From: Borrelia coriaceae
Lineage (GTDB): Bacteria > Spirochaetota > Spirochaetia > Borreliales > Borreliaceae
Reading direction: 5' to 3'
Assembly (NCBI RefSeq): GCF_023035295.1
Contig: NZ_CP075076.1
Location: forward strand, 806,001 to 870,000
Length of the DNA: 64,000 nt
Shown here: piece by piece, positions 5,192-15,610 of the stretch
Layout: each line of letters opens with the position of its first letter
How positions within the stretch are numbered: position 1 is the first letter of the stretch
The notes under the pieces: generated by a model
Told to the model about the DNA's origin: nothing
What the model saw: only the letters and a program-made list of their open reading frames with translations
The model's database searches: none
Translations under genes and position numbers: made by a program

Positions 5192-6547
5192 TTATTCTAT
5201 ATCATATTCTGTTATTTTGTTGTGCAAGGTTTTTCTTCCTATCTTAAGTATTTGGGCACATTTACTTTTATTATTCTTAGAATGTAGTAGTGTTTGCTTA
5301 ATAATTTCTTTTTCCGCTTCTTTTAAGCTTATACCTATTGGTAATGTTATTTTAACTATTTGATTTGTGTTATTTCTGATTTTAGGAGGTAGATCGTCTT
5401 TTACAATTTGTTTTCCTTTAGATAATATCAAGGCACTCTCGAGGACATTTTTTAGTTCTCTAATATTTCCTGGCCAATCATATGCATAGAGGGCTTTTAG
5501 TGCATCATTGGAAAGACTTTTCTCTTCTTTATTATTTTCATTTGCTACACTTTTAATTAGTATTTTTATTAAATTTGGTATGTCATCTTTTCTTTCCCTT
5601 AAAGGTGGAATATTGATGTTTATTATGTTAAGCCTGTAAAATAAGTCCTCTCTAAATCTTCCTTTTTTAATTTCTTCTTCAATATTTTTATTTGTTGCTG
5701 TTAATAGTCTAATATCAACTTGAATAGTAGTCTCTCCACCTACTCGTTCAAATGTTTTATTTTGAAGCACTCTTAGTAATTTTACTTGAACCTCAGGTGA
5801 TATTTCTACTATTTCGTCTAAGAATATTGTTCCTTTGTCTGCTAATTCAAATCTACCTTTTTTTTGAGATATTGCACCTGTAAATGCTCCTTTTTCATGT
5901 CCAAATAGTTCGCTCTCAAGTATGCTTTCAGAGAGCGCAGCACAATTGACTTTAATGAAGGGTTTGTCATTTCTATTGGATAAGTCAAATATAGCATCTG
6001 CTATTACTTCTTTGCCGACTCCGCTCTCTCCAGTTATTAGTACAGATGCTTTTGATTTTGCAATTTTTTTTACAAGTTCTAGAACTTTTTGCATTATAAG
6101 AGATTTTCCAAGTGTGCTTTCATAATAGTTTAAATCTTTTCGGATTATGACATTATTTTGGGATATATTCTCATGTCTTTTGTCATTTTTGCTATTTAAA
6201 GCTCGTTTGATTATTAGTAACAGTCTTTCAAGATCAACGGGTTTTGTTAGAAAATCATAAGCACCTTCTCTCATAGCATCAACTGCTGAATCGACAGTTC
6301 CATGAGCTGTTAGAATAATAAAGGGTATATTTGGGTTTTTGTCTTTTACAATTTTGAGTAGTTCTTCGCCTGATATTTGAGGCATTCTAAGATCAGATAC
6401 TATAGCATCAATTTTTTCATTTTCAATTGTTTCAAGAGCCTCTTCTCCATCACTAGCAGTAAATACAAAATAACCTTCTTCTTCAAGATAAGTTGCTATT
6501 CCTTCTCGTATATTTTTTTCATCATCTGCTACAAGTAGTTTACTCAT
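5192..6547 (-). CDS. rrp2: Sigma-54-dependent response regulator Rrp2
   Basis: This 451-residue NtrC-family activator has a receiver domain (1-120) with acidic pocket Asp8/Asp9, phospho-acceptor Asp52 (VSDLRMP) and Lys in TKPVD. The AAA+ domain (about 145-375) has Walker A GESGVGKE, sigma-54-contacting GAFTGA and Walker B GTIFLDEI. A C-terminal Fis-type helix-turn-helix ends in GRKTLHNKI. In B. burgdorferi Rrp2 is essential and, when phosphorylated, activates RpoN-dependent transcription of rpoS. The start has AAGGAT 9 bases upstream. It overlaps hk2 by 8 bases, so the pair is co-translated. Confidence 0.95.
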   Translation of the reverse strand: MSKLLVADDEKNIREGIATYLEEEGYFVFTASDGEEALETIENEKIDAIVSDLRMPQISGEELLKIVKDKNPNIPFIILTAHGTVDSAVDAMREGAYDFLTKPVDLERLLLIIKRALNSKNDKRHENISQNNVIIRKDLNYYESTLGKSLIMQKVLELVKKIAKSKASVLITGESGVGKEVIADAIFDLSNRNDKPFIKVNCAALSESILESELFGHEKGAFTGAISQKKGRFELADKGTIFLDEIVEISPEVQVKLLRVLQNKTFERVGGETTIQVDIRLLTATNKNIEEEIKKGRFREDLFYRLNIININIPPLRERKDDIPNLIKILIKSVANENNKEEKSLSNDALKALYAYDWPGNIRELKNVLESALILSKGKQIVKDDLPPKIRNNTNQIVKITLPIGISLKEAEKEIIKQTLLHSKNNKSKCAQILKIGRKTLHNKITEYDIE

Positions 6548-7700
6548 TTTCTAAACATCCTTCAATTAAAATTTTGCCTGTGTTGAATTTTGGAAGTGTG
6601 ATTGTAAAAGATGTTTCTTTAGTCTCTTTACTTTCTACAAAAATTTCACCCCCATGTTCTTTAATTATTTTATAAGAAATGGTGAGCCCTATGCCACTTC
6701 CATTTTCTTTTGTGCTAAATTGAGGCTTGAATATATCATCTTTGGTTTCATTCTTTATTCCATTTCCATTATCTTTAATACTAATATGTATTTTCTCTTC
6801 GCTTTCATGGGTAGAAATTTCTATTTTTTTTATTTTTTTATTTGATTCAAGAAGTGCTTCTTCTGCATTTTTTACTATGTTAATTATTACTTGCCTTATT
6901 AGTTTTTCATCGATTAATGCAAGGCTTACTTTTTTTAGATTGAGTAGGAGTTTAATATCTTTATTTTTCAGTTCTGGATTTAACAGGTTATAAACACTTT
7001 TTATAACGTCAGTAATATTTTTCTTTTCTGGTATTATTTTTATTGGTCTAACTGTTAATAAAAAATCTGTTATAGTTTTATCCATTCTATTTATTTCTTC
7101 TTTTATTATTTTGAAGTAATGATTTGCTTTCGTACTTTCAATTTTTTGTCTATCTATTTCTTTTTTGAGTAGTTGTAAGTTTATATCAATTGCTCCTAGT
7201 GGATTTTTAATCTCATGAGCGATATTTCTTGCATGTCTTGTAAAAGCAGCTAAAGCTTCAGCTCTTCTGAAAAGTTCTTCTTTATGTTTTTTGTCTTTAA
7301 TATCTTCAATTAAAATGATATTTCCTTCAAGCTTTTGATCCCTTACATATGGCATAAATGATATTTTTATATATATATTTGTTGAGACTTGCACCTCAAA
7401 GCCTATTATTTTATCTTCATTTTTAGCTAATTCTTCTATTAAGTGTGTTAGGGTTGGAATTTGAATATCTTTAAGGGTTTCTAGTTTGTATTTAGGGCTT
7501 ATAACTAGAATTTGAAATAACATTTTGTTTAGGTAAATTATGTTATTTAATTTATCAAGTACAAGGATTCCTTCATTAATGGATGCAAAAATACCATCAT
7601 ATATTTCTATTTTTTTATAGATATCTTGGATAAATTTGAGTTTTTGCTCGCTTGATAATTTATTTAATTTGGTTAGAGTTTTCTTTAAGAATTTGATCAT
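6540..7700 (-). CDS. hk2: Sensor histidine kinase Hk2, NtrB-like
   Basis: A 386-residue soluble histidine kinase. A PAS-like sensor region (about 33-135) precedes the HisKA domain with phospho-acceptor His162 (AHEIKNPLGA). The ATPase domain follows, with N box NIVKNAEEAL, G1 DNGNGIK and G2 GSGIGLTIS. No membrane segment is visible, so the signal must be cytoplasmic. It shares one base with the upstream holB-like stop codon (TAATG) and overlaps rrp2. In B. burgdorferi Hk2 can phosphorylate Rrp2 in vitro but is dispensable for infection, with acetyl phosphate acting as an alternative donor. GAGG lies 5 bases before the ATG. Confidence 0.93.
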   Translation of the reverse strand: MIKFLKKTLTKLNKLSSEQKLKFIQDIYKKIEIYDGIFASINEGILVLDKLNNIIYLNKMLFQILVISPKYKLETLKDIQIPTLTHLIEELAKNEDKIIGFEVQVSTNIYIKISFMPYVRDQKLEGNIILIEDIKDKKHKEELFRRAEALAAFTRHARNIAHEIKNPLGAIDINLQLLKKEIDRQKIESTKANHYFKIIKEEINRMDKTITDFLLTVRPIKIIPEKKNITDVIKSVYNLLNPELKNKDIKLLLNLKKVSLALIDEKLIRQVIINIVKNAEEALLESNKKIKKIEISTHESEEKIHISIKDNGNGIKNETKDDIFKPQFSTKENGSGIGLTISYKIIKEHGGEIFVESKETKETSFTITLPKFNTGKILIEGCLENE

Positions 7701-12364: not shown

Positions 12365-13256
12365 TTTTGCCCTCTTTTTGATATAGGTTTATTAAATTTT
12401 GAAACTCAAATTCTTTGTTTAAGTTTTCAGATTCTTTTTTGAGTATTTTAAGAGTATTTTTTGACCAAATATGTCCTATTACTTTGACAATTCCTTTTGT
12501 TCTAGCTACTTGTTTTGCTTGTTCTAGTGCTTTAGCAACTGCTTTTTCATTATCTTTGTTATCGAGGAAGATATCTCTTTTTTCTACTATAATTCCAAAT
12601 TTTTTACCAGTCTGTTCGGATATACTTTCTTTGGTAGTTAAGCTATCAAAAAAATATCTGTTTTCTTCTTTAAGTTTTATTAAAATAATTTGCATTATGT
12701 TTTCATTTGCAGTAATAAGACTTCCCATATGATTATTCATTATCTTTGCGTTGGGATATGTTTTAAACGTCTTTTCAATTTTTGTTCGTATTGAAAAGAC
12801 GTTGTCGTTGATATTTATGTTAAATTTTTCTATTGAAGTTTTATATTTTGATTGCATTGGAAAATGAATCATTATAATTTTATTTTTGCTTGCTAATTTA
12901 TTATAAAAATCCATTGATTTTGGTAAAAAGGGGATGATTGAAAAATTGATGTTTAAATCAATTTTTATGAATTCATCTAACATGAATTCATCATAGCCAA
13001 CATCATCAATGATAAGATAAAATTTTGGTTTTGAGTTATTAAATTGTAATTTTTTTTGTACTTTAGTTAAATTTTCTTTTTTTATGTTGGCTAATTTGTC
13101 CTTGAAGTTTAGATTAATTTTTTTTATATTTGATTTTATATATACAAAGCTGGAGCATAGGACAATTATTGAGACAAGAGAAGTGATAACAATAAATGAT
13201 ATTGTGATTTTTAATTTGTATTTCTTTAAAAAATTAGAAGCATTCTGAATATTCAT
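12330..13256 (-). CDS. Divergent polysaccharide deacetylase family protein
   Basis: A 308-residue protein with one N-terminal membrane anchor (about 15-37) and a periplasmic domain of the YibQ/DUF610 divergent polysaccharide deacetylase family. Family motifs visible are [28 protein letters not shown] and the late IVKVIGHIW. The IDD, NHMGS and FLDN segments correspond to the metal-site positions of NodB-like enzymes, but activity is unproven in this branch. It lies between rpoS (upstream, 45-base gap) and tsaD (downstream, overlapping), so it may be read from the rpoS transcript. Confidence 0.8.
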
Positions 13257-13301
13257 GCCATCAGCTTATCATTATATCAAAATCGGGCATTAAGTCAATT
13301 G

Positions 13302-14105
13302 CTATTGATAGAGTTCTTCTCTGAGTTTTTTAAGTACTCTTTTTTCAATTTGTCTTACAGTTTCTGAGGAGATCCCAAGTTCATTAGAGATGTCTTTTAA
13401 GGTACTTTTTTTATCACTATTGTCTAAATTATATCTTTTCCTTATAATGTACCTTTCTTTGTCATTTAATTTAGTCTCTAATATATAGTTAAGATGTTTT
13501 AATGTTGAATTTTGTTCAAGAGTGCTCTCGGGATTGAAAGAATTGTCTTCATAAAGATTTAGTAGTGTGGAATTTTCTGAGCCTTCGATTTTTTTATCAA
13601 GGGAATATTCTTTTTCAAGATAGGGTATGATTTTTATATATTGAGAAGTTGTTAGGTTAAATCTTTCCATTATGTCTTCTTTTTTGGGTGATTTTTCTTC
13701 TTCCATAAGATATTTGTTTATTTGGAGTATAAGATTTTCTTTTCTATATGGGACTTTTACAAGTCTTGTTTTTGTATTTAATGCTCTTTGAAGCGATTGT
13801 TTGATCCAAAATGAAGCATAAGTTGAAAATTTGGTGTTCTTACTTGGGTCATATTTTTCAGCAGCTCTAATTAAACCTAAATTTCCTTCTTGTATTAAGT
13901 CTTCAACTTTTAATCCCTTCCCAGCATATCTTTTAATGATTTTTAAGACGAGCCGTAAATTGGCATTTATCATTTTATTTTTGGCTTTCAGGTCTCCAAG
14001 TTTAATTTGTTTTGCAAGTTCAATTTCTTCTTCGTGAGTTATTAATCTATGTTCTCTTACGGATTTTAAGTATATGTTTAAGTCTTCATTGCTAAATATA
14101 TTCAC
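13302..14105 (-). CDS. rpoS: Alternative sigma factor RpoS
   Basis: A 267-residue sigma-70-family factor. Region 2 carries DLIQEGNLGLIRAAEKYD and FSTYASFWIKQ, region 3 is VPYRKEN, and the region 4 helix-turn-helix is LKDISNELGISSETVRQIE. In Borrelia RpoS switches on the mammalian-phase regulon, and its own gene is driven by Rrp2/RpoN. The start is GTG at 14105, with GGGAG 7 bases upstream. A candidate sigma-54 element, an inverted repeat and a strong hairpin lie upstream (separate entries). It follows the flagellar rod genes on the same strand. Confidence 0.95.
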   Translation of the reverse strand: MNIFSNEDLNIYLKSVREHRLITHEEEIELAKQIKLGDLKAKNKMINANLRLVLKIIKRYAGKGLKVEDLIQEGNLGLIRAAEKYDPSKNTKFSTYASFWIKQSLQRALNTKTRLVKVPYRKENLILQINKYLMEEEKSPKKEDIMERFNLTTSQYIKIIPYLEKEYSLDKKIEGSENSTLLNLYEDNSFNPESTLEQNSTLKHLNYILETKLNDKERYIIRKRYNLDNSDKKSTLKDISNELGISSETVRQIEKRVLKKLREELYQ

Positions 14106-14130
14106 AATACTTCTCCCATCTTTTAAATTT

Positions 14131-14144
14131 GCATATCAACATCC
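14131..14144 (-). promoter_or_regulatory. Candidate RpoN -24/-12 element upstream of rpoS
   Basis: On the minus strand GG (14144-14143) and GC (14132-14131) are separated by exactly 10 bases, the invariant spacing of sigma-54 promoters. The -12 side reads ATGCA and is good; the -24 side (AGGAT) is a poor match to TGGCA. Initiation would fall near 14119, leaving only about 14 bases of leader. Such an element is expected here, since rpoS is RpoN-dependent in B. burgdorferi. Confidence 0.4.
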
Positions 14145-14159
14145 TCATTCCTTGTTGAT
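14135..14159. repeat. 7-bp inverted repeat overlapping the candidate rpoS promoter
   Basis: ATCAACA (14135-14141) and TGTTGAT (14153-14159) are perfect complements around an 11-base spacer. The dyad overlaps the candidate -24 region. It could be a protein-binding site or, in a longer transcript, a leader hairpin. Confidence 0.5.
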
Positions 14160-14179
14160 GTTATTACAACAATTATGTC

Positions 14180-14226
14180 AACTGTAAAAAATAATTAATA
14201 TTTTTATTTAATTATTTTTTACAGTT
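14180..14226. terminator. 19-bp perfect hairpin between flgJ-like gene and rpoS
   Basis: The arms 14180-14198 and 14208-14226 are perfect 19-base complements with a 9-base loop (14199-14207). The structure overlaps the last codons and stop of the flgJ-like gene and ends 74 bases before rpoS. It can end or stall the flagellar transcript, and would be inside the leader of any long rpoS mRNA that starts in the flagellar genes. Confidence 0.7.
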
Positions 14227-14540
14227 ATTTGATTGTAGATTAAATCAGCAAGTCTAAAACTTTGAGACTTAGCTACTTGTTTTGCTCTTTCTAAATAAAG
14301 CATATCTTCAAAAATTTCTTCCGTTTGACCCCCATGAATTAAATTATTTTCTTTTTTTAGAGAATTTTTCATGCTTTTAAGCATTTGATTTACAAATATT
14401 GCTTCAAATTCTAGTGTAGCTTCATAGAGTTTATTGTCTTTTTTATGTTGACTTATTTTTTCTGTTTTGTTTGTTAGGATTTTTCCTTGTTTTATTTGAT
14501 TTTTTGTTTCTAGATTTTGTAAATTAATTTTGTTTATCAT
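14208..14540 (-). CDS. FlgJ-like rod-binding protein, no muramidase domain
   Basis: A 110-residue protein whose second half (about 40-105) matches the rod-binding domain found at the N terminus of FlgJ: LEFEAIFVNQMLKSMKNSL, then GGQTEEIFEDMLYLERAKQVA. The C-terminal glucosaminidase domain of enterobacterial FlgJ is absent, as in many spirochaetes and alpha-proteobacteria. It probably caps or scaffolds rod assembly in the periplasm. A strong GGAGG precedes its ATG. It is the last flagellar gene before rpoS. Confidence 0.8.
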   Translation of the reverse strand: MINKINLQNLETKNQIKQGKILTNKTEKISQHKKDNKLYEATLEFEAIFVNQMLKSMKNSLKKENNLIHGGQTEEIFEDMLYLERAKQVAKSQSFRLADLIYNQITVKNN

Positions 14541-14556
14541 ATCTATTCCTCCAAAA

Positions 14557-15468
14557 TTAATTTTCCATATAGTTTATTAATTTTTTAGCTGCCTGAGTTA
14601 TTTGTATTAATTTTTTATTGCTAAACGTATCTGGATTTTTTGATATAAATTTATTTAGTTTCATATTTTGTGTCTCTATTTTTGTCTTTTCATCGTTTTT
14701 ATTGTTCAGTAAGTTTTTTTCCTTTCTTCTAATTGAGAGTATGAGTGGATTTAGTTTTATTGTTTCAATTTCGCTTAACAAGTCAATTCCATTGATTTTA
14801 ATTTCTATGGTCTTTTTTGATTTTATATTATTTTTTTCATTATTGATTTTTGGTTTTTTCATTATTGAATCTGATGAAAAATAGTCTTTTTTATTAGGAA
14901 TTGTATTGTAATTTTTATTATTCTTATTTTTATGGGTTGTTGTTTCGTTTAGTATATATTTTTTATCTTTCGATTTTCTGTTAGTTACTTTTGGGCTTGA
15001 TTTGATTGCTAATACTTTGTTTGTTTTGTTTTGTAATTTGGTCCTTAGAGGTATACCATTTTTTAAGTTTTTTGAATCGAACATGGATTCTATGTAAGCA
15101 TTTTGCTTTGAACTTTTAATTATATTTTCATTTATTTTGCTTGTTGCGCTTACTAGTGAAATGTTATTGTTTTTTATGTTTGTTAAAACTATTTCATTTA
15201 TGTAAAGCTTGTTTAAATCCTTATTTGATATTTCTTTTCCCTTAGTATAATTTTTTTTATTGGCAAGTTCTGCTATTATTCTAATTTTTGTTAAGATATA
15301 TGAGTCTGTAGATCTCATTTCTTTGTTATTGTTTAACTTGATCCATGCATTTGTTTGATTAGTAATATTATTTTTATTAAAAAAGCTTTTTTCAGATTGA
15401 TTTTTTTGTGCTAATGAGCTTAAGGCTATCGTTAAGTTTAATATGGCTAGAGTTATCAGTATTTGCAT
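14557..15468 (-). CDS. K/N-rich exported protein in the flagellar rod cluster
   Basis: A 303-residue protein with a clean signal peptide (MQILITLAILNLTIALSSLA). The frame continues to a TTG at 15492, but ATG 15468 has AAGGAAT 7 bases upstream and is preferred. The mature part is very rich in Lys, Asn and Ser, with a disordered middle (about 150-230) and a helical C terminus. From memory the same slot in B. burgdorferi is annotated flgI (P ring), yet I see none of the FlgI signatures. It lies 16 bases before the flgJ-like gene. Function is unknown, probably flagellar and periplasmic by context. Confidence 0.6.
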   Translation of the reverse strand: MQILITLAILNLTIALSSLAQKNQSEKSFFNKNNITNQTNAWIKLNNNKEMRSTDSYILTKIRIIAELANKKNYTKGKEISNKDLNKLYINEIVLTNIKNNNISLVSATSKINENIIKSSKQNAYIESMFDSKNLKNGIPLRTKLQNKTNKVLAIKSSPKVTNRKSKDKKYILNETTTHKNKNNKNYNTIPNKKDYFSSDSIMKKPKINNEKNNIKSKKTIEIKINGIDLLSEIETIKLNPLILSIRRKEKNLLNNKNDEKTKIETQNMKLNKFISKNPDTFSNKKLIQITQAAKKLINYMEN

Positions 15469-15578
15469 GATTTTATTCCTTTTGTATGGCAATATAGTTT
15501 ACCTTTATTTTAATATTATTGCAATTGCTTTTAGTTTGTTCGTTGTTTTCTTTGGATTTGTTCGTCAATTTAAAGTTT

Positions 15579-15610
15579 AATTATAAAATTAAAATAGAAT
15601 TTTTATAATT
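15579..15610. repeat. AT-only inverted repeat upstream of the K/N-rich gene
   Basis: AATTATAAAA (15579-15588) and TTTTATAATT (15601-15610) form a 10-bp dyad in the gap between the flgA-like gene and the K/N-rich gene. A minus-strand TATAAT (15585-15580) falls in the first arm, so this may be a promoter region. The rest of the gap shows nothing else. Confidence 0.3.

What the first reader, a model, noticed from the sequence alone, without database searches (positions are those of the whole stretch)
14180..14226. 19-bp perfect hairpin between the flagellar rod genes and rpoS
A perfect 19-base inverted repeat overlaps the stop codon of the flgJ-like gene and would form in the leader of any rpoS mRNA that begins in the flagellar genes. 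In B. burgdorferi a long rpoS transcript starting upstream, controlled post-transcriptionally by the sRNA DsrA-Bb, is described. The hairpin may separate flagellar from RpoS expression, act as an attenuator, or be a 3'-end stabiliser.
Basis: partly seen in the sequence, partly recalled or inferred. Interest (0 to 1): 0.7.

Follow-up and report, generated by a model that had tools for sequence, protein, structure and literature searches.

The report
Conserved hairpin between flagellar genes and rpoS
The perfect hairpin is real and is this genome's version of a paired element found at the same spot, between the flagellar genes and the host-adaptation switch gene rpoS, in most of the Borrelia relatives examined; it may hold back flagellar read-through into rpoS, and this genome has also lost the usual rpoS promoter.

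Summary
Confirmed: a perfect 19-bp inverted repeat (14180-14198/14208-14226, loop 9), far beyond chance. Both genes lie on the minus strand; the mRNA 5' arm contains the flgJ stop codon. The window is from a relapsing-fever-type Borrelia.

A dyad sits at the same place, just upstream of or overlapping the rpoS sigma-54 promoter, in most of 36 Borreliaceae genomes; in 29 of 36 at most one of 60 shuffles is as good. Arm letters differ between clades but stay complementary. In 17 of 18 Lyme-group genomes the arms are the two BosR motifs of "BosR site BS2" (within one mismatch); none of the 13 relapsing-fever-type dyads carries that motif. So pairing, not the motif, is what is shared.

The window's genome alone (1 of 36) lacks the sigma-54 promoter of rpoS, although rpoN, rrp2 and bosR are open. 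Five relatives have the reverse: broken rpoN, promoter kept. All six keep the hairpin, which argues against a role in sigma-54 activation.

Best reading: an RNA element that limits flagellar read-through into rpoS, a candidate for the unexplained transcript drop between flgJ and rpoS reported for B. burgdorferi (PMC6117026). I have no RNA data; a DNA site, or upkeep by template-switch mutation, remains possible.

The parts
14208..14226 (-). 5' arm of the hairpin in the mRNA sense; holds the last flgJ codons and the stop codon (14210-14208)
14199..14207 (-). 9-nt loop
14180..14198 (-). 3' arm of the hairpin in the mRNA sense; ends at the place where relatives have the -24 element
14166..14181 (-). 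place of the rpoS sigma-54 promoter in 35 of 36 genomes; here the -24 GG and -12 GC doublets are both missing (3 mismatches to the pattern)
14208..14540 (-). flgJ-like gene (rod-binding domain PF10135 over its cut-off; FlgJ models of NCBIfam below theirs), last flagellar gene before rpoS
14557..15492 (-). flagellar gene upstream of flgJ (best NCBIfam model NF009348, P-ring protein, below its cut-off)
13302..14105 (-). rpoS (267 aa, open; 93-98% identical to the hits in the other 17 genomes of the genus; best NCBIfam models are RpoS, below their cut-offs)
14137..14163 (-). second, smaller predicted hairpin in the rpoS leader (7-bp outer stem)
14092..14142 (-). possible 16-codon upstream reading frame overlapping the rpoS start
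5192..6547 (-). rrp2-like sigma-54 activator gene, open, sigma-54 interaction domain PF00158, GAFTGA in its sequence (the name rrp2 is recalled from its place and domains)
6540..7700 (-). hk2-like open frame beside rrp2 (named from its place; recalled, no family search made)

Best explanation
The hairpin is a conserved paired element at the flgJ-rpoS junction that acts in RNA. When RNA polymerase reads out of the flagellar operon, the nascent RNA folds at the flgJ stop codon and lowers the amount of transcript that continues into rpoS (early end of transcription, possibly with Rho, or cleavage/processing at the stem). This keeps flagellar read-through from making RpoS and, in species with the sigma-54 promoter, shields that promoter from passing polymerases. 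Because the stop codon lies in the 5' arm in most relapsing-fever-type genomes, a ribosome ending flgJ translation would keep the stem open, which would couple read-through to flgJ translation. In the window's genome, with the sigma-54 promoter gone, rpoS would depend on this gated read-through or on an unrecognised promoter. Shown: position, conserved pairing with changed letters, absence of the BosR motif from the relapsing-fever-type dyads, promoter loss, open rpoN/rrp2/bosR frames. Inferred: that it acts as RNA, that it lowers read-through, the shielding, the ribosome coupling, and the source of rpoS mRNA here.
For: Same place in most genomes: the best dyad ending at the -24 element was matched by none of 60 shuffles in 25 of 36 genomes and by one in 4 more. 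Stem kept while letters change: 97.7% of cells paired over 12 pairs in 13 relapsing-fever-type rows (11 distinct), 5 cells with change on both sides in 2 pairs; 0 of 500 shuffles reach the paired percentage, the two-sided cell count or the covariation score, and slid controls have no two-sided change; RNAalifold finds the same stem. In the window's row a two-sided change, and an inserted base opposite a changed one, go with a longer stem (my reading of the alignment). Pairing rather than BosR motif: motif within 1 mismatch in both arms in 17 of 18 Lyme-group genomes, in 0 of 13 relapsing-fever-type dyads. Kept without sigma-54: hairpin present in five genomes with broken rpoN and in the window's genome, which lacks the promoter. 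Reported transcript drop at this spot without an intrinsic terminator in B. burgdorferi (PMC6117026, passages); BS1/BS2 reported not needed for rpoS activation there (PMC11109971, section read).
Against: No RNA end, structure probing or expression data for this species. No U-tract follows the stem and only 2 of its 19 pairs are G-C; no terminator match here (whose scan asks for at least 3 G-C pairs). Two measures are ordinary: pairs with two-sided change 181/500, pair types 415/500. In the Lyme group there is no two-sided change, and four of its 18 genomes score weakly (G024, G030, G026, G027: z 1.9-2.8), as do the five left-out genomes of the window's genus (z 1.7-2.9). G008 breaks two of the 12 pairs, G015 one. 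The rpoN-broken genomes also keep the now unread -24/-12 motif, so keeping the hairpin there may be mere lag; the stronger case is the window's genome.
Confidence: 0.47

Rival explanations
1. DNA operator: the dyad is a binding site for a dimeric regulator (BosR or another factor such as BadR) that controls the rpoS promoter; its ability to fold as RNA is a by-product.
For: In the Lyme group the arms coincide with BosR site BS2, whose two repeats lie on opposite strands (PMC3037356, passages). Across clades the dyad ends at the -24 element while its distance from the flgJ stop varies. A Fur-family gene, taken as bosR, is open in 36 of 36 genomes.
Against: None of the 13 relapsing-fever-type dyads carries the BosR motif within one mismatch. 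BS1/BS2 are reported dispensable for rpoS activation. The dyad is kept where the sigma-54 promoter or rpoN is gone.
Confidence: 0.23
2. 3'-end stabiliser or RNase III processing site: the stem protects or matures the flagellar mRNA and does not act on rpoS.
For: The stem abuts the end of the last flagellar gene; 19-20 pairs in the window; RNase III is said to control rpoS mRNA turnover in B. burgdorferi (PMC11109971, discussion passage).
Against: In the Lyme-group rows with the standard dyad the stem starts 32-52 nt after the first base of the flgJ stop yet still ends at the -24 element, which ties it to rpoS rather than to flgJ.
Confidence: 0.15
3. Mutational upkeep without function: a quasi-palindrome repeatedly 'corrected' by template-switch replication, which makes perfect stems and mimics compensatory change.
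For: Changes come in clusters (adjacent two-sided changes in G001; substitution plus matching insertion in the window); the mechanism is described for RNA stems (PMC8794818, abstract and introduction as shown in the outline).
Against: A dyad at this same spot in clades with unrelated arm letters is more than one corrected quasi-palindrome would explain.
Confidence: 0.11
4. In-place promoter switch: the altered -24/-12 stretch has become an extended -10 housekeeping promoter (TGACATAAT, 14172-14180) and drives rpoS here. Compatible with the hairpin readings, so its odds stand apart from theirs.
For: The hexamer and TG spacing match.
Against: Such matches occur at chance level in the window (12 seen, 13.8 expected), and two genomes with an intact sigma-54 motif score equally (L025, L020); in L025 the match is part of the sigma-54 motif itself.
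Confidence: 0.12

Closest known systems
BosR binding site BS2 upstream of B. burgdorferi rpoS (PMC3037356)
   Same: Same place, overlapping the -24 element; two repeats on opposite strands = two arms of a dyad.
   Different: The window and the other 12 relapsing-fever-type rows have a dyad with unrelated letters and no TAAATTAAAT within one mismatch.
Unnamed element between flgJ and rpoS inferred from B. burgdorferi RNA-seq (PMC6117026)
   Same: Same interval; transcripts from flgJ fall off there and no intrinsic terminator was recognised (passages).
   Different: That is coverage data in one species, without a structure; here a structure is found, without RNA data.
Intrinsic terminators of B. 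burgdorferi (PMC10319736)
   Same: Stem-loop after a last gene; A/T-rich.
   Different: No U-tract after the stem; stem 19-20 pairs against an average of about 7 there (passages).
RpoN-RpoS cascade of B. burgdorferi (PMC1976401, PMC11109971)
   Same: rpoN, an rrp2-like gene, a Fur-family gene taken as bosR, and rpoS all present and open in the window's genome.
   Different: The cis element linking RpoN to rpoS is missing.
rpoN loss in New World relapsing-fever borreliae (PMC4157404, PMC8316131)
   Same: Another route by which sigma-54 and rpoS become uncoupled (passages); broken rpoN seen here in 5 of 36 genomes.
   Different: The window's genome has the opposite lesion: rpoN open, promoter lost.

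Membership tests
Intrinsic (Rho-independent) terminator | G+C-rich stem | tested here: not met
   2 of 19 pairs are G-C (letters); the scan finds no terminator-like site at the hairpin
Intrinsic (Rho-independent) terminator | U-tract directly after the stem | tested here: not met
   Letters after the 3' arm are not a T run; a T6 run lies inside the 3' arm
Intrinsic (Rho-independent) terminator | RNA 3' end at the site | not testable with these tools
BosR DNA site (BS2 type) | Perfect or near-perfect TAAATTAAAT in the arms | tested here: not met
   Window and 12 of 12 other relapsing-fever-type rows have none within 1 mismatch in the 60 nt upstream of the -24 site; both arms have it in 17 of 18 Lyme-group rows
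BosR DNA site (BS2 type) | Protein footprint | not testable with these tools
   Bench assay
Sigma-54 promoter | GG and GC doublets of -24/-12 at rpoS | tested here: not met
   Pattern found upstream of rpoS in 35 of 36 genomes, not in the window's; best local remnant on the coding strand upstream of rpoS has 3 mismatches
Conserved RNA stem | Two-sided changes that keep pairing | tested here: met
   5 cells in 2 pairs, 0/500 shuffles, none in slid controls; but two other measures are ordinary (181/500, 415/500), and the Lyme group shows none
Conserved RNA stem | Match to a described RNA family | tested here: not met
   No Rfam match at the hairpin in 12800-15600 at E up to 1
DsrA-Bb-controlled rpoS leader | Pairing of DsrA with the leader | not tested
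   DsrA was not sought in this genome

The most novel reading that the evidence does not exclude
rpoS in this species has left sigma-54 control altogether: rpoN, rrp2 and bosR survive, but rpoS is now driven by flagellar-operon read-through, gated by an RNA hairpin that a ribosome finishing flgJ holds open, so that flagellar-gene translation licenses RpoS. More widely, the Lyme-group 'BosR site BS2' is the same hairpin, and the conserved thing at this junction is an RNA gate and not an operator.
Probability: 0.17. Interest if true: 0.85.

Novelty: new variant of a known kind. Interest (0 to 1): 0.6.

Why it matters
RpoS is the switch for host adaptation in Lyme Borrelia. RNA-seq left an unexplained loss of transcripts between flgJ and rpoS (PMC6117026, passages). 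A paired element kept at that spot with different letters in different clades gives a concrete, testable candidate and a second reading of a well-known BosR site. The six genomes in which sigma-54 and rpoS are uncoupled, five by rpoN loss and one by promoter loss, are natural tests of what else controls rpoS in relapsing-fever species, whose pathway for virulence gene control is said to remain undetermined (PMC8316131, passage).

Tried and rejected
Chance: rejected. Canonical terminator: rejected on stem and tail. New extended -10 promoter: match at chance level and equalled by two genomes with an intact sigma-54 motif; kept only as a rival. Another sigma-54 site for rpoS: on the coding strand none with fewer than 3 mismatches in the 1.5 kb upstream (its 2-mismatch minus-strand hit lies downstream of rpoS). 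Other exact sigma-54 matches in this genome: five copies of one sequence on four contigs other than the chromosome; the one looked at lies antisense inside a phage-type open frame, the other four were not looked at. The six-genome list was cut by the tool and is not used. Rfam: nothing at the hairpin. Lyme alignment: my first register was off by two columns, recounted. Naming the species: two plasmid pieces gave B. turicatae as nearest (85% over 58% of one, 91% over all of the other), with records of the window's own genome possibly left out by the tool; the tree puts it beside G007/G009/G017 on a long branch with support 0.08; left unnamed. Loss of the sigma-54 motif where rpoN is broken: not seen in 5 of 5; I made no test of how much change to expect.

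In alignment A1 I used 13 of the 18 genomes of the window's genus; the five of the other sub-clade (G010, G012, G013, G014, G016) were left out because their dyads differ, and the window's row was taken five bases shorter at its 5' end. rpoN dN/dS used nine of the 31 open genes. The chance estimate for complementary change (0.036 for one change on each side, 0.003 for two) assumes a transition share of 0.6, my choice. B. burgdorferi was not singled out among the unnamed Lyme-group genomes. I did not meet a description of this hairpin in the held open library; that rests on the listings and the passages cited, and most subscription papers are not held.

Full report
What is there. On the minus strand the window reads a P-ring-like flagellar gene, flgJ (14208-14540), a 102-nt gap, rpoS (13302-14105). 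The reported repeat is exact and is the only perfect one with arms of 19 in the window. In the mRNA the 5' arm carries the end of flgJ with its stop codon and the 3' arm ends where relatives have the -24 promoter element.

Whose genome. The window is part of a 1.79-Mb genome in 24 contigs. Its family search covered 36 genomes, 18 of its own genus and 18 of another.

The dyad is conserved. For each of 36 genomes the best inverted repeat ending within -8 to +6 of the -24 motif was scored against 60 dinucleotide shuffles: none as good in 25, one in 4 more, two to five in the remaining 7 (G010, G012, G016, G014, G024, G030, G026). The clades use different letters. In 13 relapsing-fever-type sequences, 12 aligned pairs are 97.7% paired, with two-sided changes in 5 cells of 2 pairs; 0 of 500 shuffles match three of five measures, while the count of such pairs (181/500) and of pair types (415/500) is ordinary; slid controls show no two-sided change. 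RNAalifold, without being told, returns the stem; 4 of its 19 pairs have two-sided changes, one of these in a separate small stem. One-sided changes are partly G-U: G007, G017, G009 and G015 have them; breaks occur in G015 (one pair) and G008 (two). The Lyme-group dyad is 90.9% paired without two-sided change, so it gives no covariation evidence.

What is kept is pairing, not the BosR motif. B. burgdorferi site BS2 has one perfect and one imperfect TAAATTAAAT on opposite strands just upstream of -24/-12 (PMC3037356, passages). In 17 of 18 Lyme-group genomes both arms of the dyad are these repeats within one mismatch; in 0 of 13 relapsing-fever-type genomes is there such a repeat within 60 nt upstream of the -24 site. 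BS1 and BS2 were reported to be removable without loss of rpoS activation (PMC11109971, section read).

The sigma-54 promoter is gone in this genome only. The pattern TTGGCAYNNTTTTTGC occurs in 35 of 36 genomes, in each of them upstream of rpoS (one extra hit in G002), and not once in the window's genome; both doublets are missing at the corresponding place (14166-14181). rpoN is full length and open here (418 aa; over the NCBIfam cut-off for sigma-54; core-binding and DNA-binding domains over Pfam's cut-offs, activator-interacting domain below its own), with pairwise dN/dS of 0.15-0.21 against 0.09-0.19 among eight other open genes compared, so it still looks constrained, perhaps slightly less than elsewhere. 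The rrp2-like gene and the single Fur-family gene taken as bosR are open. Conversely rpoN is broken in 5 of 36 genomes, all of this genus, as was known for New World species (PMC4157404, PMC8316131, passages), and all five keep the motif. All six uncoupled genomes keep the hairpin (scores 12-20); since the five also keep a motif that rpoN no longer reads, lag cannot be excluded for them.

How it may work. In B. burgdorferi essentially all rpoS transcription under one set of culture conditions was ascribed to a housekeeping promoter inside flgJ or to read-through of flgIJ, and substantial flgJ transcripts ended between flgJ and rpoS although no intrinsic terminator is there (PMC6117026, passages); other work finds rpoS RpoN-dependent (PMC1976401, section read; PMC11109971, section read). 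A stem that forms behind the polymerase at the end of flgJ, reducing what reaches rpoS, fits the dyad's place upstream of the promoter, its persistence without sigma-54, and its changed letters. It is not a canonical terminator, so Rho, cleavage or a bound factor would have to help; B. burgdorferi uses Rho widely (PMC10319736, passages). The stop codon lies in the 5' arm in 12 of 13 relapsing-fever-type genomes (in G008 the scored arm starts 11 nt past it), so a terminating ribosome could hold the stem open; this is inference. In the Lyme-group rows with the standard dyad the stem starts 32-52 nt after the first base of the stop, so any coupling would be clade-specific.

Limits. Perfect stems with clustered complementary changes also arise by template-switch mutation (PMC8794818, abstract and introduction as shown in the outline), which weakens covariation as proof of selection. 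DNA-level roles are not excluded. Whether the promoter loss is fixed in the species is unknown, since I saw one genome of it.

Noticed in passing
window 14092-14142 (-): A short upstream reading frame (MLI.KF type, 16-17 codons) starting at -37 to -40 and overlapping the rpoS start occurs in 8 of 13 relapsing-fever-type genomes; G008 has a shorter form, G002/G003/G005 have a different frame, G015 lacks it. Much of it overlaps the rpoS ribosome site and start, which are constrained anyway.
   Followed up: partly
window 14137-14163 (-): A second predicted hairpin in the rpoS leader with a 7-bp outer stem around a purine-rich stretch.
   Followed up: no
G004, G007, G009, G011, G017 (L048-L052): rpoN is broken in these five genomes yet the rpoS -24/-12 motif keeps both doublets.
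   Followed up: partly
L066:1786-1800 (+): An exact sigma-54-like match, present five times on four smaller contigs of this genome, lies antisense inside a phage-type open frame in the copy looked at.
   Followed up: partly
window 14166-14181 (-): At the lost promoter two changed positions are complementary to each other, so a small stem predicted there in relatives could still form (pair 69-81); a single pair, possibly chance.
   Followed up: no
window 12766-12803: A perfect 14-bp inverted repeat with a 10-nt loop inside the polysaccharide-deacetylase-like gene next to rpoS.
   Followed up: no
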